From assembly GCA_007136585.1 (NCBI GenBank), contig SLGR01000156.1, positions 1 to 7,036 on the forward strand: DNA of 7,036 nucleotides. Reading direction: 5' to 3'. The translations under genes and the position numbers were made by a program. A model generated the notes under the pieces. It was not told the origin of the DNA. It did not search any database and saw only the letters and a program-made list of their open reading frames with translations. This document shows positions 2 through 7,036 of the stretch, in pieces (positions within the stretch are counted from its first letter, which is position 1; the number at the start of each line of letters is the position of its first letter). This stretch comes from Candidatus Sumerlaeota bacterium (GTDB lineage: Bacteria > CG03 > SLGR01).

Positions 2-601
2 ACAGTAGTGACGGCGTTTCTATGCGCCGCAGGGCTTCTGGCGGCCGGATGCGCCAGGGTCTCCGAGGTTGAAACGGTTACCCCGGAGCGTCCTTCCAGG
101 ATGCTTATAGCGGATTTTGACGCAGGCGATCCGCCGAATATGCTCGGAGGGGATTACGGAGCCTGGGATAAGGATCCTGAAGATGAGACTCAGTCCGCCG
201 AGATCTTTTTTGAAGAGGAAAAAAGAATGGGAGATACGGGGTATTCCCTGGGGGTCAAGTATGATGTGGATTCCCCGAACCCGGCCTTCAACGGGTTCTG
301 GATGAGCCTTGCAGGATCGGATTTTTCGGATTATGATTATCTTGTCATATCCGTAAAGGGAGATTCCGAGAAGGGGTTTACCAACCGGTTCAAGGTTGAG
401 CTTAAAAACGATGCCGGGCAGACCGGGACCTATATGGTCTCAGGCGTAACAGACGAGTGGCAGGAGATAGAGATCCCGCTTAATATGGTAAGGGGGATCC
501 GGGACTTCTCCGTAATGGAAGAGTTTGTTATTGTCTTTGAAGACGCCGTGGCTTCACCCAAGGAAGGCGTAATATATATAGACAATATTTGCGTACGGTA
601 A
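2..601 (+). CDS. Lipoprotein with a single CBM11/CIA30-like carbohydrate-binding-type module (5' end outside window)
   Basis: The reading frame is open to the left edge. GTG at 8 is the first possible start inside the window, but only seven bases precede it and the resulting signal peptide would have no positive n-region, so the true start is probably upstream. Counting from GTG 8, a hydrophobic stretch ends in a lipobox (LLAAGC, Cys15), predicting cleavage by signal peptidase II and lipid attachment. After a short linker, residues 33-197 form one beta-sandwich module: an opening LIADFDAGD, an N-x-LGG motif, a central RFKVELKN strand, a DEWQEIEIPL strand and a closing GVIYIDNI strand. This pattern is typical of CBM11/CIA30-like galactose-binding folds. 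The module is most like the N-terminal module of the downstream enzyme, so a surface or periplasmic glycan-binding role is inferred. No catalytic domain is present. A hairpin follows the stop codon, so the gene may end its own transcript. Confident as a lipoprotein; ligand unknown. Confidence 0.8.
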   Translation, partial: TVVTAFLCAAGLLAAGCARVSEVETVTPERPSRMLIADFDAGDPPNMLGGDYGAWDKDPEDETQSAEIFFEEEKRMGDTGYSLGVKYDVDSPNPAFNGFWMSLAGSDFSDYDYLVISVKGDSEKGFTNRFKVELKNDAGQTGTYMVSGVTDEWQEIEIPLNMVRGIRDFSVMEEFVIVFEDAVASPKEGVIYIDNICVR

Positions 602-610
602 AAACTCCTG

Positions 611-669
611 AATAACGGGTCTGACAGGAGGGCGGTGTAAAACAATACCGCCCTCCGGGCCCGTTTATT
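611..669 (+). terminator. Long imperfect hairpin, probable intrinsic terminator after the lipoprotein gene
   Basis: The core stem is a perfect 10-bp inverted repeat, GGAGGGCGGT (627-636) with ACCGCCCTCC (647-656), extendable inward by a G-U and a T-A pair to leave a six-base loop (639-644). Outside a four-base bulge (623-626) pairing resumes: 616-622 with 657-663 (two G-U pairs), then AATAA (611-615) with TTATT (665-669) after one bulged T. The GC-rich stem followed by TTTATT resembles a rho-independent terminator, and the AT-rich outer arms would allow bidirectional action. The T tract is interrupted by A, so efficiency is uncertain. It could also act as an attenuator or partial terminator between the lipoprotein gene and the downstream operon. 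Confidence 0.7.
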
Positions 670-681
670 ATGGGAAACGGT

Positions 682-690
682 AAAAGGAGG
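682..690 (+). promoter_or_regulatory. Strong ribosome binding site that fixes the start of the glycoside hydrolase gene at GTG 700
   Basis: AAAAGGAGG is a near-perfect Shine-Dalgarno sequence ending nine bases before GTG 700. The in-frame ATG at 670 has no such site: it lies directly against the 3' arm of the hairpin, and choosing it would put this Shine-Dalgarno sequence inside the coding region. I therefore prefer GTG 700. Confidence 0.8.
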
Positions 691-699
691 TCTTTAAAA

Positions 700-3174
700 G
701 TGAGCGCCTGGAAGGTTGCGGCGGAAAAATATGTTTTAAACCAGAGGTTTCTTCTGGTTCTAATAATACTTTTTGGAGCCGGTTTTCTTTTCCGCGGAGA
801 AAGGGTTAAGCTCATAGATGATTTTGAGGAACGCCGGGAGACCAATCTTATCGGCGGCTCGGCCGGAGGTTTTGCCGATCGGGTCCGAACCTCCTTTGTT
901 TCAGATACCCGTAACGATACTGAGACCACAGTTTTAAGGATAGATTACCTGGTTACCCCGGATACTTTCAACGGGTACTTCAGCGGCCTTGACGGGTTTG
1001 ACGCCAGGTACTACGAGAACCTTGTCTTTTATGCCAGGGGTGGGGGCAGATACCCCGAAACATTCAAGGTGGAAGTTAAGAATGTTTCCGGCGAATCGGG
1101 AGAATATCATATAACCAATCTGGAGAGCCAGTGGCAGCTTTTCAAGATACCTCTTGAAGAATTTGAAGGTATTGAAGATATTTCCGGGCTTGATGAGGTT
1201 GTTTTTGTTTTTGAGGGTGAGGTTCTCGGGGATGATGCGGGTACGGTTCTGCTGGATGAACTTAAGTTTACCGGAAGCAGATCTCATTACAGATCCGTAG
1301 ACCGGGAGATAAAGGCTGCGCGCAGGGATACTCAGCGCCGGATAAAGGAGCTTCTTGAACTGGAAGAAGACGATTTTCTGGAAGAAGTTTCAAGAGAGAT
1401 TTTTGAGTATTTCTGGAAGGAAGCTCACCCCGAGACAGGGTTTATCCGGGACAGGACACGGAAAGACTCTCCTTCAAGTATAGCCGCTACGGGTTTCGGT
1501 CTTGCCGCTTACTGCATAGGGGTGGAGCGTGGCTGGGTAGAGAGGGAACGGGCAAAGGAGAGGGTTCTTAAAATCCTGAGAAAAACCTCTGAGAGGGCGG
1601 CCGGACATGAAGGTTTTTTCTACCATTTTATTGATATGGAGACGGGGGAAAGAAGGTGGCGTTCCGAGCTTTCTTCGGTGGATACGGCCCTCCTTTTCGG
1701 GGGTATAATAACGGCCCGCGAGTATTTTGACGACCCGGAGATAACCGAACTTTCCGACGAACTCTTCCTTGAGATCAACTGGCCCTGGATGATGGATTCC
1801 GAAACAAAGGCACTTTATATGGGATGGGACCCTGAGAACGGTTTCGATGATTATATCCTCTGGGATATGTACGCCGAACAGATGATAATGAACATACTCG
1901 GGCTGGGATCTCCCACACATCCGCTCCCGGAGGAGGCATGGGATTCTTTCCGCCGCCCGGTAAAAACTTACGACGGGATAACATATATCTACTGTGAGAG
2001 CGAATCGCTGTTTGTATACCTGTTTTCGCACGCTTTCATAGATTTCCGGCAGAGGTATGACGCCTATGCCGATTACTGGGAGAATAACCGCAAAGCGGTA
2101 AAAGCGCATATAGCTTTCTGCAGGAACAATCCTCTGGGTTTCCGCACCTTTGAAGAGGGGTTCTGGGGTATATCTGCCGGGGACGGTCCCGAAGGCTATA
2201 GAAATCACGGAGCGACCATTTTTACCACGGACGGCACTGTAACCCCTTACGCGGTCGCGGGGTCCTATCCTTTTGTTCCCGAAGAATCCCTGGAAGGGAT
2301 GCGCAGGATGCTGGAAAAATACGGAGAAAAACTATGGGACGATGAGTACGGTTTTATCAGCGCCTTCAACCTGGACAGGTGGTGGTTCTCCCGGGAACAT
2401 ATCGGGATTGACCTTGGAATAATGATTCTTATGATGGAAAACCACAGAACGGAGTTTGTCTGGGATTACTTTATGCGGAACGAGTACGTCCAGCGGGGGA
2501 TGGAGAGAGCGGGGTTTACAGAGGGGGTCAAGGAGTTTGAATACAAACCTGAAGAGCCCGCTGAACTCTCTGTTGAAGAAAGAAGCTACAGGGCGAGGAA
2601 TATCCCGTCTCCGGGTTACCTTACCGAGTCGGATTATTATGAGATGGACGAATCAATGCTTGAGTTCGGCAAGATACGGGATGAGAAAGATCTGGGTGCG
2701 CGGTTTGCCGCAGGCTGGAATGATGAGAACCTGTTTTTATCTGTTGATGTCATAGATGATGTTATTATTACCGACCGGCGCGCCTCTTTTCTTTTCCAGC
2801 ATGACAGTGTAGAGGTTTATATCTCGCCCGATAGAATACTGGAATGGGGCAACCCGGAGCATTTTCAGATCGGGTTCTCTCCTTCCGGGCCGGAGGGCGA
2901 ACCTCAGCGGTATGCCTTTTTCCAGAGGGAAGACCCGGGTGAGAACGTGCAGCTGGAATCTTCAATACGGGAGGGCGGGTACAGTATACGCGCCGCTCTC
3001 AGCTGGGATTACCTGGGGGTAACCCCCGAACCTGGAAAATCCCTGGGTTTTTCGGTGGCTGTTCACGATGTTGACCGTCCGGAACGGGACGGAGCAGGAG
3101 GAAAAAAACTTAACTGGGCTTTTAAGGATACCCCGCACGGAATACTTCTGGGGCGGCTTATACTCGGAGAATGA
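700..3174 (+). CDS. Membrane-anchored GH144-like (PF10091 'glycoamylase' type) glycoside hydrolase with N-terminal CBM11/CIA30-like and C-terminal CBM9-like modules
   Basis: The protein is 824 residues from GTG 700 (834 from ATG 670). Residues 17-31 are a hydrophobic segment without a clear cleavage site, so an N-terminal anchor with the bulk outside the cytoplasm is likely. Residues 37-192 form a beta-sandwich module (LIDDFE, NLIGG, TFKVEVKN, VLLDELKF). A charged helical linker follows at 199-230. Residues 228-606 match the glycoamylase/GH144 alpha-barrel family as I know it: ATGFGLAAYCIGVERGW, ELSSVDTALL (Glu323, Asp328), WDMYAEQM with Glu393, GLGSPTHPLP, AGDGPEGY, DGTVTPYA, AFNLDRWW and GIDLGIMILMMEN. 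Characterised GH144 enzymes are endo-beta-1,2-glucanases; related domains occur in cyclic beta-1,2-glucan synthases. The acidic residues are plausible catalytic candidates, not mapped by alignment. Residues 640-824 resemble the CBM9/DOMON-like fold (AGWNDENLFLSVDVIDD, DSVEVYISPD, LNWAFKD). The stop overlaps the next ATG by four bases (ATGA), implying translational coupling. Catalytic family is confident; beta-1,2-glucan specificity is inference. Confidence 0.88.
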   Translation: MSAWKVAAEKYVLNQRFLLVLIILFGAGFLFRGERVKLIDDFEERRETNLIGGSAGGFADRVRTSFVSDTRNDTETTVLRIDYLVTPDTFNGYFSGLDGFDARYYENLVFYARGGGRYPETFKVEVKNVSGESGEYHITNLESQWQLFKIPLEEFEGIEDISGLDEVVFVFEGEVLGDDAGTVLLDELKFTGSRSHYRSVDREIKAARRDTQRRIKELLELEEDDFLEEVSREIFEYFWKEAHPETGFIRDRTRKDSPSSIAATGFGLAAYCIGVERGWVERERAKERVLKILRKTSERAAGHEGFFYHFIDMETGERRWRSELSSVDTALLFGGIITAREYFDDPEITELSDELFLEINWPWMMDSETKALYMGWDPENGFDDYILWDMYAEQMIMNILGLGSPTHPLPEEAWDSFRRPVKTYDGITYIYCESESLFVYLFSHAFIDFRQRYDAYADYWENNRKAVKAHIAFCRNNPLGFRTFEEGFWGISAGDGPEGYRNHGATIFTTDGTVTPYAVAGSYPFVPEESLEGMRRMLEKYGEKLWDDEYGFISAFNLDRWWFSREHIGIDLGIMILMMENHRTEFVWDYFMRNEYVQRGMERAGFTEGVKEFEYKPEEPAELSVEERSYRARNIPSPGYLTESDYYEMDESMLEFGKIRDEKDLGARFAAGWNDENLFLSVDVIDDVIITDRRASFLFQHDSVEVYISPDRILEWGNPEHFQIGFSPSGPEGEPQRYAFFQREDPGENVQLESSIREGGYSIRAALSWDYLGVTPEPGKSLGFSVAVHDVDRPERDGAGGKKLNWAFKDTPHGILLGRLILGE

Positions 3175-5129
3175 CCGCCGGCAGCCGGTACCGTCACTCT
3201 CCTGTAAATATTTTAATGGAAATACCCTTACTGCGCGCTTTTTCAATAAGTTATAAAGTTATAGCCCGACCCCTTTTATTGATTTTTCTTCTTACCGCGC
3301 CGGTTTCTGGGGGAAGCCGGGTTATTATTGACCCGATGGACGACTGGTGGGTCCTTGCCACCCCGACGGCTCCCCATAATAATGTTCACACCCTTGAAGA
3401 TAACGCAAACAGGATCCGGTACGATCTTCCCCGGCAGGGGTGGGTGGCGCTCGTAAAAGAAGGGGCGGGGCTTTTAGATGCAAGCACCGGGGACGCGATA
3501 AGTTTCCGGGCCCGCGGAAGCGGAAAAAACAATAACCTGCAGATACAGCTCAGGGATAAGGACGGCAGCCTGAGCGTGAGAAGCTTCAAGGGGATAACAT
3601 CTGAGGAAAACTGGTACAGTTACACTGTTCCGTTTGCTTTTCTTGACGCGGGGGAGGATGACCCCCTCAACCGGAGCTCTGTATCTTTTCTGGGGTTTGC
3701 CGTAACCCCCTCGGAGGGCGGCGCCGGGAGCGTAACCATAGACAGTATAGAATCCCTTCACCTCAGGACAGATGCTGTTTATACAATAAGCACTTTTGAT
3801 CAGGGGTACCCTCCAATGGAGGGGAGCTGGTCCGACGAGGGAGCTTCGGTGGAGTCGCTCTACGACCCGGATAACGCCTTAAGCGGGCTCTACACCCTGA
3901 AACTGGAATATGATCTCAGCGGTTCAAAGGGTGGGTACTACTGGAAGTTGAGCTCCGATCACCCCGGGGTTAAAGGGTATGAGAAACTCAGGGCTGTCAT
4001 CAGAAGCACCGCCCCCGGAAAAAGTTTTAAATTTGAGCTCAAGGATTCCGGCGGGGATACACTGGGATCCTTTGAAGTTCCTCCCACGGTGGATACAGAA
4101 TGGAATGATATAGAGATAGACCTCGGATCCGTCGGGTTCGGTATTGACAGTAACGATAAACCCGATGTTCAGGAACTGACTCTTGTAATAGTAGACGGCG
4201 ACCACGAGGCGGCGGGTCTTCTTTACCTTGACCGGGTGGAGTTTACATCCGGGAACGCCCAGGATATGCGTGAAGATATAGTATATGACAGTATGGAGCT
4301 TCCCTGGCAGATCTCGGGGTGGAAGAATTACGGAAGGGATGCGAATCTCGGGATAACCTCCTCAAGGCTTGAGAGCGTCCCGGGAGCAGTGGGGGGCAGG
4401 GCCATAAAACTTGAATACGAGTTCAGAAGAGAAGAGCCCGAAGAGGACGACTGGGTTGTAATGGAAAGGGACTGGGGGCTTAATCTGGCAACGGCCACCC
4501 ACCTGGGGTTCAGCTACGCCGGGACCGGGGACTCCAATAACCTTGAGGTAAAGATCCAGGATAAGAACGGCACCATATACTGGAGAAAGTTTTTTTCAGT
4601 TACAGATACCGGGGGTAAGTGGCGGGATAAGAAGATCCCCTTAAGCGATTTTGCTCTTTTTGAGAAGGGTGATCAGGGGGAGGTTGACCTGGACCTTACG
4701 AAGCTGAACAAGTTTGATTTCGCCGTATCCGGAAACGAGGGTTCAACCGGGGATATTTACATCCGGGACCTGGGGCTCTACTTTAAAAGCGATTTTAAGC
4801 GTGAGAGAACGGGACGCCTTATTGAAAATATAGAGGTCACCAACAACCCCTTTTCCCCGAGCGGTGACGGGCTGAAGGATACCACGGAGTTTCTTTTCAG
4901 CCTTTCCGGCGAGGCTTCTGTAAAGCTGGAGATCTTTTCAGTAAACGGGAGCCGGATATATGAGAAAGAGCTGGGAAACCTCTCCCCCGGACTCACTCAC
5001 ACCCATAAATGGGACGGCAGGGATAGCTCCGGGAGCAGGGTCTCAAACGGTATGTATTTTTACCGGCTCAGGGCATCCGGTTCCGGCGGAAGTGAGAGCA
5101 TAAAAAACCTTATAGGGGTTATTCGCTGA
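3171..5129 (+). CDS. Secreted protein with three tandem beta-sandwich (carbohydrate-binding-type) modules and a FlgD-Ig-like C-terminal domain
   Basis: The protein is 652 residues from ATG 3171, which overlaps the upstream stop as ATGA. An in-frame ATG at 3216 gives a shorter, more usual signal peptide; neither start has a well-spaced Shine-Dalgarno, so coupling probably drives initiation. Residues 34-47 are the hydrophobic core (PLLLIFLLTAPVSG), with likely cleavage near VSG|G. Module 1 covers about 50-198, module 2 about 204-358 and module 3 about 369-538. Each ends in the same hallmark strand (SVTIDSI, LLYLDRVEF, DIYIRDLGLYF). Modules 1 and 3 share a G-x-G-x-x-NNL...DK-x-G core, whereas module 2 has FKFELKD, as in the lipoprotein and the hydrolase. 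No catalytic domain is visible. Residues 551-652 are FlgD-Ig/gliding-type: NPFSPSGDGLKD, VKLEIFSVNG, HKWDGRDSSG, VSNGMYFYRL. Such domains often sit at the C-terminus of surface proteins and resemble type IX sorting domains. A multivalent glycan-binding or scaffold protein is inferred; the ligand is unknown. Confidence 0.85.
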   Translation: MTAGSRYRHSPVNILMEIPLLRAFSISYKVIARPLLLIFLLTAPVSGGSRVIIDPMDDWWVLATPTAPHNNVHTLEDNANRIRYDLPRQGWVALVKEGAGLLDASTGDAISFRARGSGKNNNLQIQLRDKDGSLSVRSFKGITSEENWYSYTVPFAFLDAGEDDPLNRSSVSFLGFAVTPSEGGAGSVTIDSIESLHLRTDAVYTISTFDQGYPPMEGSWSDEGASVESLYDPDNALSGLYTLKLEYDLSGSKGGYYWKLSSDHPGVKGYEKLRAVIRSTAPGKSFKFELKDSGGDTLGSFEVPPTVDTEWNDIEIDLGSVGFGIDSNDKPDVQELTLVIVDGDHEAAGLLYLDRVEFTSGNAQDMREDIVYDSMELPWQISGWKNYGRDANLGITSSRLESVPGAVGGRAIKLEYEFRREEPEEDDWVVMERDWGLNLATATHLGFSYAGTGDSNNLEVKIQDKNGTIYWRKFFSVTDTGGKWRDKKIPLSDFALFEKGDQGEVDLDLTKLNKFDFAVSGNEGSTGDIYIRDLGLYFKSDFKRERTGRLIENIEVTNNPFSPSGDGLKDTTEFLFSLSGEASVKLEIFSVNGSRIYEKELGNLSPGLTHTHKWDGRDSSGSRVSNGMYFYRLRASGSGGSESIKNLIGVIR

Positions 5130-5136
5130 AAAACCT

Positions 5137-6060
5137 ATGTCCACAGAGTATAAAAAACGCATAAAAATCTTCCGGGTCCCCCCGCCGGCACTCTTTTTTT
5201 GCCTGAAACTTCCTCTTATAGCATCTTTTATTCTTTTAATATGCCGGACAGCGCTCCCGGCCGGAGGGGCCTTTACGGCTCTCCCCCCCAGCGCCCTTGC
5301 GGCGGGGCTGGGTTATATTTCATGTTCTTTCAGAGGTGAGCCGTCTGCTCTTGAAGAGAACCCTGCCTCCCTTGCCGGAGTGGAGGGTATAACGGCTCAG
5401 TTTTCATACCGGGATTATTATTCTCTCAACCTTATGGGACATTCCTGGGCGGGGCTTGCCGTCCCTGTCGGAAGGAGTGCCGCAATGGGGTTCTCCCTTA
5501 GCAGGATGGGAACCTCCAGGCGTGTTGATTTTATGGATTACTCCGAGGAGGTTTTCTCTCTGGGGCTGGGCGGGGATACGGGTTTCGTCCCCGGACTTAA
5601 AGCGGGAGGGGCTTTCAGTTTTTACCGGGTTGATTCCCGGGAGAACGCCTCAGGGTTCGGTTTCTCCTGCGGGGTGACCTGGAACCCGCAGGGGTTCCGT
5701 GAGCTGACCCTGGGGGCGTCTCTGAAAAACTTAAACAGTCCCCGCATTGAGTGGACCACCGGGGCCTCTGATATCCTCGCCCCTGAAGCATCTGTATCTG
5801 CCGGTTATGCCCATCCCCTGGGGTTCTCGGGGGGAGTCGGTTATAACGGGCTTCTGAGGGCAGGTTTACAGTACGATATACCCGGTGAGATGCTTTCGGT
5901 GAGAGCAGGGTACCGGGATCTTGACGATTATACCGGGTCTATCTCGGGAGGGATAAGCGTTTACTACAGGGGTCTGAGGATTGATTATGCCGCTGAGAAT
6001 CACGCGGCTCTGGGTCTCTCCCACCTGTTTACGGTGAATGTTTCTATTGAAAGGATATGA
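5137..6060 (+). CDS. PorV/PorQ/UPF0164-like outer-membrane beta-barrel protein
   Basis: The protein is 307 residues. A long basic n-region (KKRIK) leads to a hydrophobic segment at about 25-37, with signal cleavage likely around residues 42-45. The mature start has the family hallmark: GGAFTALPPSALAAGLG, then PSALEENPASLAGVEG at about 69-84, corresponding to the usual 'A-L-x-x-NPA-x-L' turn of PorV/PorQ, UPF0164 and FadL-related barrels. The rest alternates small and aromatic residues as transmembrane beta-strands do (SWAGLAVPVG, LKAGGAFSFYRV, LTLGASLKNLN, VSAGYAHPLGF, LSVRAGYRDLDDY). Length is normal for the family. The C-terminus (FTVNVSIERI) lacks the terminal aromatic residue often seen in barrel-assembly signals. 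PorV and PorQ take part in type IX secretion in Bacteroidota; UPF0164 proteins are FadL-like in treponemes. Here it sits seven bases after a gene whose product has a FlgD-like C-terminal domain, so a role in export or display is possible. No good Shine-Dalgarno is seen; AGGGG at 5114-5118 is too distant, suggesting coupled translation. Confidence 0.82.
   Translation: MSTEYKKRIKIFRVPPPALFFCLKLPLIASFILLICRTALPAGGAFTALPPSALAAGLGYISCSFRGEPSALEENPASLAGVEGITAQFSYRDYYSLNLMGHSWAGLAVPVGRSAAMGFSLSRMGTSRRVDFMDYSEEVFSLGLGGDTGFVPGLKAGGAFSFYRVDSRENASGFGFSCGVTWNPQGFRELTLGASLKNLNSPRIEWTTGASDILAPEASVSAGYAHPLGFSGGVGYNGLLRAGLQYDIPGEMLSVRAGYRDLDDYTGSISGGISVYYRGLRIDYAAENHAALGLSHLFTVNVSIERI
6049..6055 (+). promoter_or_regulatory. 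Ribosome binding site for the last gene of the window
   Basis: GAAAGGA lies at the end of the barrel gene, seven bases before ATG 6063. An in-frame ATG at 6057 overlaps the upstream stop but is only one base from this site, so 6063 is the better start. Confidence 0.6.
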
Positions 6061-6062
6061 AA

Positions 6063-7036
6063 ATGAAGAATTTGCTTTTTAAAGTTATCGCAGGAGCCGC
6101 GCTTGCGCTTTTTTTCTCCGGTCCGGCCGGAGCGCGGGAGATTTATGTGGAGGATTTTAACGAGCAGAGTTTTGAGGGGTACCTGGGGGCTCACGGCCCC
6201 TGGAGGGTTGACGAGAAGGATCCGACAGGCGGAGCCGAGGCGGATTTTGTCCGGACTCGCGACGGTTACGCGCTCAAACTATCCTACAGCGTTGACTCAG
6301 CCATCTCCTATTTTTTCGGACCTGTCTTTATACAGGATTACAGCGAGTTTACGATCCTGGGGACCTCGGACGGTATGCCCCATATGGTCCCCTGCGGGTA
6401 TTATTTTCTTCTGGGAGAGACGGATCTTAGAAGGAAGCAGTACCTGGTTTTCTCCGCCCGGGGGGATGAGCGGGCCGGGTTTACCCGGAGGTTTCATATA
6501 GAGATCAAGACCGCTGAGCGTGTAAGCCGGTTCCTTTTTGAGGGACTTACATCCAGCTGGAGAAAATACGCTCTCCCGCTTGACGTTTTTGACGGTATAG
6601 ACGACTGGAGCGCCGTAACCGAACTTACTATAGTTTTCAACGAACACGTGACTGCCGAGAGGGGTGTAATATATCTGGATGATATTTACTTTGTGCGGGA
6701 CCCGGCGCTTATACCGGAGCCTTCCGGGGGGGATCCGGGGGGGGCTGAGGATCCTCTCGGGGATTATACATATTTTACTTCTCTTAACCTGAGCTCAAAT
6801 TACAGACATACCCCGGAAAGAGGGGGGGAGATATTCTCTTCCGCAGAGTCCGTGATACAGGGGCGCACCGGCGGGATAACCGGAAGGGTTAGGGCAAGGG
6901 CCGGAGACCAGGAGTTCGGTTCGGCCGCCTACCGGGTCGCGCTTGACGAGTATCCCTATACCAGGTTTGAGTCGGCCGAAAGGAGCGTGACCTTTCCCAC
7001 ACTGCAGCTTAAGACCGGGAGTCTGGGCCCGCTTGC
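6063..7036 (+). CDS. Exported protein with N-terminal CBM11/CIA30-like module and unrecognised beta-rich region (3' end outside window)
   Basis: The frame is open from ATG 6063 to the window edge (324 codons plus two bases). Residues 1-24 are a clear signal peptide: MKNLLFK, hydrophobic core, cleavage at AGA|R. Residues 27-213 form a beta-sandwich module (YVEDFNEQ, YLGAHGPW, LKLSYSVDS, RRFHIEIKT, SSWRKYALPL, GVIYLDDIYF). Compared with the lipoprotein module it carries an insertion of roughly 35 residues near 92-125 that includes Cys111. A Gly/Pro/Asp-rich linker (about 217-234) follows. From about 236 the sequence is rich in Ser, Thr, Arg and aromatic residues with an alternating pattern (YFTSLNLSSNYRHT, GGITGRVRARAGDQEFGSAAYRV), suggesting beta-strands and possibly the start of an outer-membrane barrel; I do not recognise the family. 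It is separated from the barrel gene by two bases, so it belongs to the same operon. G tracts of 7, 8 and 7 bases lie in and after the linker. Total length and function cannot be judged from this fragment. Confidence 0.8.
   Translation, partial: MKNLLFKVIAGAALALFFSGPAGAREIYVEDFNEQSFEGYLGAHGPWRVDEKDPTGGAEADFVRTRDGYALKLSYSVDSAISYFFGPVFIQDYSEFTILGTSDGMPHMVPCGYYFLLGETDLRRKQYLVFSARGDERAGFTRRFHIEIKTAERVSRFLFEGLTSSWRKYALPLDVFDGIDDWSAVTELTIVFNEHVTAERGVIYLDDIYFVRDPALIPEPSGGDPGGAEDPLGDYTYFTSLNLSSNYRHTPERGGEIFSSAESVIQGRTGGITGRVRARAGDQEFGSAAYRVALDEYPYTRFESAERSVTFPTLQLKTGSLGPL
6726..6828 (+). repeat. Cluster of three poly-G tracts in the linker region of the last gene
   Basis: G7 at 6726-6732, G8 at 6737-6744 and G7 at 6822-6828 fall within 103 bases. 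The first two form a short imperfect tandem unit (CC, G tract, AT, CC, G tract). They encode Gly-Gly pairs in a flexible linker and at the start of the next region. They may simply reflect GGG codon use; slippage is possible but not shown. Confidence 0.55.

What the first reader, a model, noticed from the sequence alone, without database searches (positions are those of the whole stretch)
700..7036. Candidate surface glycan-processing operon joining a GH144-like hydrolase, a FlgD-tailed binding protein and a PorV-like barrel
Four consecutive genes overlap by 4 bases or are separated by 7 and 2 bases. They combine a membrane-anchored glycanase, a multi-module binding protein, an outer-membrane barrel and a second binding-module protein. 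There is no SusC/SusD pair or ABC transporter here, so it is unlike a classic polysaccharide utilisation locus. It could break down an external glucan or remodel the cell's own periplasmic or capsular glucan.
Basis: inference. Interest (0 to 1): 0.6.

Follow-up and report, generated by a model that had tools for sequence, protein, structure and literature searches.

The report
Beta-1,2-glucan capture operon with secretion pair
Four adjacent genes of an uncultured bacterium probably display a sugar-binding protein on the cell surface, draw in a rare glucose polymer (beta-1,2-glucan) and cut it, using an outer-membrane kit different from the textbook one; one gene pair turns out to be one of about 26 'cargo plus its own shuttle' secretion pairs in that genome.

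Summary
In detail: four co-directional, tightly spaced genes at 700-7036. The window is a whole 7,036-bp contig, so gene 4 is cut and flanking genes are missing. The run is conserved gene for gene in two other genera. The hydrolase is GH144 with its four marker residues conserved (acid E403, base D338, F448, Y510); best PDB match is the beta-1,2-glucanase XcSGL. The substrate is most likely beta-1,2-glucan: the same genome encodes, on other contigs, an ABC importer of the sophorooligosaccharide (Lin1841) type, a GH35 of the beta-1,2-glucosyltransferase type, and an NdvB-type GH94 phosphorylase fused to a polytopic membrane domain; in relatives these share contigs with the GH144 run. So "no ABC transporter" is an assembly artefact; "no SusC/SusD" stands. 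The FlgD-tailed protein plus PorV-like barrel is best read as a type IX-like secretion cargo with a dedicated shuttle: 26 of 31 PorV-family genes in this genome directly follow a tail-bearing gene, tails and barrels co-vary (Mantel r 0.53), and a SprA-like translocon is present. Gene 4 (from orthologs) is a binding domain on an outer-membrane barrel. A new variant of the known Ignavibacterium-type beta-1,2-glucan locus. Nothing was tested biochemically.

The parts
2..601 (+). Lipoprotein (lipobox LAAGC) with one CIA30/CBM-like jelly-roll domain; 5' end cut by the contig start
   Evidence: ORF; 60% and 58% identical to lipoproteins of G001 and G004 in the same gene clusters
614..665 (+). Strong GC-rich hairpin between the lipoprotein gene and the GH144 gene, followed by TTTATT; terminator- or stabiliser-like
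   Evidence: fold -45 kcal/mol, z -6.07, 0 of 200 shuffles as good; no counterpart upstream of GH144 in G001 or G004
683..702 (+). Shine-Dalgarno AAAAGGAGG and GTG start (700) of gene 1
   Evidence: sequence
700..3174 (+). Gene 1: GH144 beta-1,2-glucanase; signal sequence or anchor, CIA30-like jelly roll, catalytic (alpha/alpha)6 domain, C-terminal CBM9
   Evidence: acid E403, base D338, F448, Y510 conserved (numbering from ATG 670)
1861..2481 (+). PF10091 match within the catalytic domain
   Evidence: 228 bits
2668..3117 (+). CBM9-like domain of gene 1
   Evidence: PF06452 46 bits, cut-off 23.4
3171..5129 (+). Gene 2: surface glycan-binding protein, CBM11/CIA30-like modules plus FlgD_ig/CHU_C C-terminal tail (type IX secretion-type sorting domain)
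   Evidence: PF03425 47.7, PF08547 37, PF13860 43.2, PF13585 35.5 bits, all over cut-off
4836..5126 (+). C-terminal secretion tail of gene 2 (residues 556-652)
   Evidence: iterated tail HMM 3.6e-21
5137..6060 (+). Gene 3: PorV/PorQ-family outer-membrane barrel, probable dedicated shuttle/anchor of gene 2
   Evidence: NF033709 36 bits; iterated family HMM 1.7e-64; pairing rule 26 of 31 in this genome
6057..7034 (+). Gene 4 (cut by contig end): CIA30-like binding domain followed, in full-length orthologs of 693-698 aa, by an outer-membrane beta-barrel ending in Phe
   Evidence: 53% identical orthologs; 16-20 amphipathic strand segments versus about 9 in shuffles, C-terminal F

Best explanation
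The operon is the outer-membrane and periplasmic half of a beta-1,2-glucan utilisation system. Gene 2 binds glucan on the cell surface; its C-terminal tail sends it through a type IX-like translocon (SprA-like protein elsewhere in the genome), and gene 3, a PorV-family barrel encoded directly behind it, is its own shuttle and membrane anchor. Gene 4, a binding domain fused to an outer-membrane barrel, lets glucan or its fragments into the periplasm. Gene 1 (GH144) cuts it to beta-1,2-glucooligosaccharides (sophorooligosaccharides), helped by the sugar-binding lipoprotein. A Lin1841-type ABC importer (contig C28) takes these up, and GH35 and NdvB-type GH94 enzymes process them inside. Shown by sequence: families, catalytic residues, gene order, conservation, cargo/shuttle pairing, presence of importer, GH35 and GH94 in the genome. 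Inferred: substrate, localisation, transport steps, and that contigs C169, C181 and C28 act together.
For: GH144 architecture and active site (residue roles from PMC12102758). Gene-for-gene conservation in G001 and G004. Beta-1,2 pathway markers: G001 on the same contig has a GH35 closest to IALB_1185 (7vkx, 1.3e-100, against 6.8e-49 for the next kind) and an SBP-permease fusion closest to Lin1841 (5ysb, 1.1e-86); G000 has both orthologs side by side on C28. G013 contigs C92 and C8 overlap by 138 bp inside the GH144 gene, giving one run: gene-4-like barrel, lipoprotein, GH144, SBP-permease, permease, GH94. [quoted passage not shown] LacI regulators stand at the cluster heads in G001 and G004. 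Cargo/shuttle: 44 of 55 PorV-family genes in four genomes have a tail gene directly upstream, against 4 of 53 directly downstream; Mantel r 0.53, p 2e-4 in G000 and r 0.54, p 4e-4 in G003; SprA-like 1,727-aa protein, E 1e-53.
Against: No biochemical or expression data. The window contig is not joined to C28 or C169. The SprA match is below the curated cut-off (182 of 200 bits), GldM was not found, and the PorU model matches only tails, so the secretion system is incomplete by the Bacteroidota list. The window PorV-like protein scores only 36 bits against a cut-off of 90. The barrel nature of gene 4 rests on pattern statistics; the AlphaFold model failed (pLDDT 35).
Confidence: 0.72

Rival explanations
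1. The operon trims or recycles the cell's own periplasmic or capsular beta-1,2-glucan rather than feeding on an external one.
For: The neighbouring GH94 in relatives resembles the chain-trimming GH94 domain of cyclic glucan synthase and is fused to a membrane domain.
Against: A tail-bearing (surface-type) binding protein, LacI-type regulators, a Lin1841-type importer and GH35 point to uptake. In this genome the only GH94 match is on C169; a GT84 synthase was not searched for directly.
Confidence: 0.13
2. The GH144 acts on another beta-glucan, or is an inactive binding or regulatory homolog.
For: PF10091 members are often annotated only as putative glucoamylase; no assay was done.
Against: Acid, base and both marker residues are conserved; the pathway neighbours are beta-1,2 specific by best match.
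Confidence: 0.08
3. The PorV-like barrel is itself a FadL-like glucan channel, not a shuttle for gene 2.
For: PorV belongs to the FadL-type barrels (PMC9143113); it lies in a glycan operon and its family score is low.
Against: Genome-wide pairing with tail-bearing genes of very different sizes and co-variation of tails and barrels.
Confidence: 0.15

Closest known systems
Beta-1,2-glucan (SGL) gene cluster of Ignavibacterium album (IALB_1177-1187, PMC8861115)
   Same: GH144, NdvB-type GH94, GH35 beta-1,2-glucosyltransferase and a Lin1841-type ABC importer
   Different: Outer-membrane step: there a TonB-dependent transporter is presumed; here a tail-bearing binding protein with its PorV-like partner and a binding-domain barrel, plus a membrane-embedded GH94
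Type B CTD cargo with cognate PorP/SprF shuttle in Flavobacterium johnsoniae (PMC12618676, PMC9143113)
   Same: Cargo gene with a C-terminal sorting domain directly followed by its own FadL-type shuttle barrel; several pairs per genome
   Different: Here the shuttle is PorV-family, the tail is FlgD_ig-like (also over the CHU_C cut-off), about 26 pairs in one genome, outside Bacteroidota, no GldM or PorU sortase detected
Bacteroidota SusC/SusD polysaccharide utilisation locus
   Same: Surface glycan-binding protein, outer-membrane barrel and glycanase in one operon
   Different: No SusC or SusD; the main binding protein carries a secretion tail instead of a lipobox
[quoted passage not shown]
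   Same: Its GH94 domain is the nearest solved relative of the GH94 in the partner genes
   Different: No GT84 or GH189 domain found in the partner protein; a different polytopic membrane domain instead

Membership tests
GH144 beta-1,2-glucanase (clan GH-S) | Sequence membership of the catalytic domain | tested here: met
   PF10091 228 bits; best PDB hit XcSGL (GH144) 1e-67, also CpSGL and BDI_3064
GH144 beta-1,2-glucanase (clan GH-S) | General acid (CpSGL E211), putative base (CpSGL E142), F286 and Y367 of XcSGL | tested here: met
   E403, D338, F448, Y510 in the window protein, invariant in four homologs (PMC12102758)
GH144 beta-1,2-glucanase (clan GH-S) | Hydrolysis of beta-1,2-glucan with inversion | not testable with these tools
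   needs an enzyme assay
Beta-1,2-glucan utilisation cluster | Sophorooligosaccharide ABC importer (Lin1841-type) | tested here: met
   in the own genome on C28 and, in G001 and G013, on the same or an overlapping contig as the GH144 gene
Beta-1,2-glucan utilisation cluster | GH94 and GH35 (or GH3) partner enzymes | tested here: met
   GH94 on C169 and GH35 on C28 of the own genome; GH3 not sought
SusC/SusD polysaccharide utilisation locus | SusC-like TonB receptor and SusD lipoprotein | tested here: not met
   none in the operon or in the orthologous operons; plug-bearing receptors in the genome are four, frames of 611-691 aa
Type IX secretion system | SprA/Sov translocon | tested here: inconclusive
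   clear homolog, 182 bits at E 1e-53, below the curated cut-off of 200
Type IX secretion system | PorM/GldM motor | tested here: not met
   no match in four genomes, E 0.45 in the fifth; divergent forms could be missed
Type IX secretion system | PorU sortase | tested here: not met
   only the C-terminal tail region of the model matches
PorV/PorQ family (gene 3) | Curated subfamily score NF033709 of at least 90 bits | tested here: not met
   36 bits; it joins by an iterated family model at 1.7e-64, and 20 paralogs in the genome pass the cut-off
Type B CTD cargo (CHU_C) | C-terminal CHU_C domain over the PF13585 cut-off | tested here: met
   35.5 bits, cut-off 27; but TIGR04131 and TIGR04183 are below their cut-offs

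The most novel reading that the evidence does not exclude
The partner protein in this operon family, an NdvB-type GH94 phosphorylase fused to a roughly 780-residue polytopic membrane domain with its periplasmic partner (fused into one 2,083-aa protein in another phylum), moves beta-1,2-glucan chains across the inner membrane and phosphorolyses them on entry (vectorial phosphorolysis), at the end of a TonB-independent glucan intake line.
Probability: 0.1. Interest if true: 0.85.

Novelty: new variant of a known kind. Interest (0 to 1): 0.5.

Why it matters
It would show a way for an outer-membrane bacterium without SusC/SusD to feed on a polymer made by other bacteria, and it ties this to a genome-wide 'one cargo, one PorV-type shuttle' secretion arrangement in a little-known non-Bacteroidota phylum, which makes the question of how type IX cargo is matched to its shuttle testable on some 26 natural pairs.

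Tried and rejected
Structure prediction of full-length gene 4 (three sequences) and of the GH94-linked membrane domain (two sequences) gave pLDDT 35 and 33 and was not used; no fold search was run on them. The promoter and terminator scan found no more than shuffles. GldM and PorU searches were negative. Considered and dropped: that gene 1 is membrane-anchored (orthologs have cleavable-looking signals); that the GH94 partner is a glucan synthase (no glycosyltransferase domain found).

Full report
WHAT IS THERE. The window is the whole of contig C181 (7,036 bp) of an 88%-complete MAG of 1.88 Mb. Gene 1 most likely starts at GTG 700, behind AAAAGGAGG. Gene 4 runs off the contig. A hairpin at 614-665 folds at -45 kcal/mol, z -6, and has no counterpart upstream of GH144 in relatives; it may separate the lipoprotein transcript from genes 1-4.

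CONSERVATION. The four genes occur in the same order and orientation in G001 (same family, other genus) and G004 (other family, same order), at 58, 41-45, 49-55 and 53 % identity. The matching public records are deposited as 'Elusimicrobia bacterium' T1Sed10_83R1 and CSSed10_371m. G003 has a rearranged form: tail protein, PorV-like, a CIA30-CBM9 protein resembling gene 1 without its catalytic domain, and a CBM-barrel protein, with GH94 and GH35 genes further along the same contig. In G013 two contigs overlap by 138 bp at 98 % within the GH144 gene, so the run there is: gene-4-like barrel, lipoprotein, two other genes, GH144, SBP-permease fusion, permease, GH94. An Endomicrobia MAG (L082) has a full-length GH144 ortholog alone. 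The phylum has only 16 genomes held.

GENE 1. GH144: PF10091 at 228 bits, best solved structure XcSGL (8xul), then other GH144-type entries. From the printed alignments and the residue roles in PMC12102758, the acid is E403 (CpSGL E211), the putative base D338 (CpSGL E142), with F448 and Y510 matching XcSGL F286 and Y367; all are invariant in four homologs. Endo or exo action cannot be told.

PATHWAY. In G001 the same contig carries a GH35 closest to the beta-1,2-glucosyltransferase IALB_1185 and an SBP-permease fusion closest to the sophorooligosaccharide-binding protein Lin1841. The window's genome has both, adjacent to a permease and an ATPase, on C28. The Ignavibacterium cluster has the same set: GH144, GH94 of the cyclic-synthase type, GH35, Lin1841-type importer (PMC8861115). 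This makes beta-1,2-glucan the best substrate, and the 'no ABC transporter' statement an effect of the short contig.

THE GH94 PARTNER. Directly upstream of GH144 in G001 and G004, and on contig C169 of the window's genome, lies a protein of about 1,770-1,870 aa: a 780-residue polytopic domain, a basic stretch (a run of lysines) that puts the next part in the cytoplasm by the positive-inside rule, and a GH94 whose nearest solved relative is the NdvB/Cgs GH94 (1e-105 to 1e-109), with the GDWNDG motif kept. Before it stands a periplasmic repeat protein with a C-terminal anchor; in G102, another phylum, repeat, membrane domain and GH94 are one 2,083-aa protein. The membrane domain occurs in 4 of 290 genomes searched. 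C169 ends 40 bp after the GH94 stop with AGAGGAATAT, and the window begins a few codons inside the lipoprotein gene; they may be neighbours but do not overlap.

GENES 2 AND 3. Gene 2 ends in a FlgD_ig/CHU_C domain, gene 3 is PorV-family. The genome has 31 PorV-family matches. With iterated models, 26 of the 31 such genes that have an upstream neighbour on their contig follow directly on a tail-bearing gene on the same strand, mostly with a 4-base overlap or a short gap; over four genomes 44 of 55 upstream, against 4 of 53 downstream. The loci were chosen by the PorV model, not by the tails. Tail and barrel distances correlate among paralog pairs (Mantel r 0.53, p 2e-4, G000; r 0.54, p 4e-4, G003). 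A SprA-like protein is present in all five genomes; GldM and the PorU sortase were not found. This resembles type B CTD cargo with cognate PorP/SprF shuttles (PMC12618676; PMC9143113), but with PorV-type shuttles. So the pair is a general secretion cassette whose cargo, here, is a glycan-binding protein.

GENE 4. The window holds only 326 residues. Full-length orthologs (693-698 aa) have a CIA30-like domain and about 460 residues rich in amphipathic strands (16-20 segments against about 9 in shuffles) ending in Phe; the G003 relative has CBM30/CBM11/CIA30 domains over cut-off before its barrel. I read it as an outer-membrane channel with a built-in binding domain. The genome has four TonB-plug receptors in frames of 611-691 aa, none SusC-sized.

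WHAT IS SHOWN AND WHAT IS INFERRED. Shown: gene content, order, conservation, active-site residues, pathway genes in the same genome, cargo/shuttle pairing. Inferred: substrate, cell location, transport route, joint action of genes on separate contigs. The named parts are all known kinds; the combination at the outer membrane, the PorV-type pairing and the membrane-bound GH94 are the new variant.

Noticed in passing
G000 genome-wide (L180-L206) and G003 (L208-L219): About 26 pairs of a FlgD/CHU_C-tailed gene directly followed by a PorV-family barrel gene in one 1.9-Mb genome, many with 4-base overlaps; tails and barrels co-vary.
   Followed up: yes
L060 (G000:C226) 1-18003: A single open frame of at least 6,000 aa with a SecA-like stretch (DEAD, cross-linking, P-loop and wing domains) near residues 4,270-5,050, a GH130-like match and a weak PF10091 match.
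   Followed up: partly
G003:C25 22027-23367: GH94 domain inside an open frame of 11,860 aa.
   Followed up: no
L034 7158-12782, L036 814-6297, L059 41-5584, L165 2279-8530: Membrane-domain-GH94 fusion proteins with a periplasmic repeat partner, fused into one protein in G102; the membrane domain has no Pfam match.
   Followed up: partly
L036 982-984; L034 3226-3228: Single in-frame TAG stops in otherwise conserved proteins of G004 (membrane-GH94) and G001 (lipoprotein, at a conserved Trp); mutation, strain variation or assembly error.
   Followed up: partly
window 614-665: Very stable hairpin between the lipoprotein gene and gene 1, not listed by the terminator scan.
   Followed up: partly
L035 1046-2842; L037 611-2389: A second GH144 (with a PA14 domain by Pfam in L037) in the neighbourhood of the same clusters in G001 and G004.
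   Followed up: no
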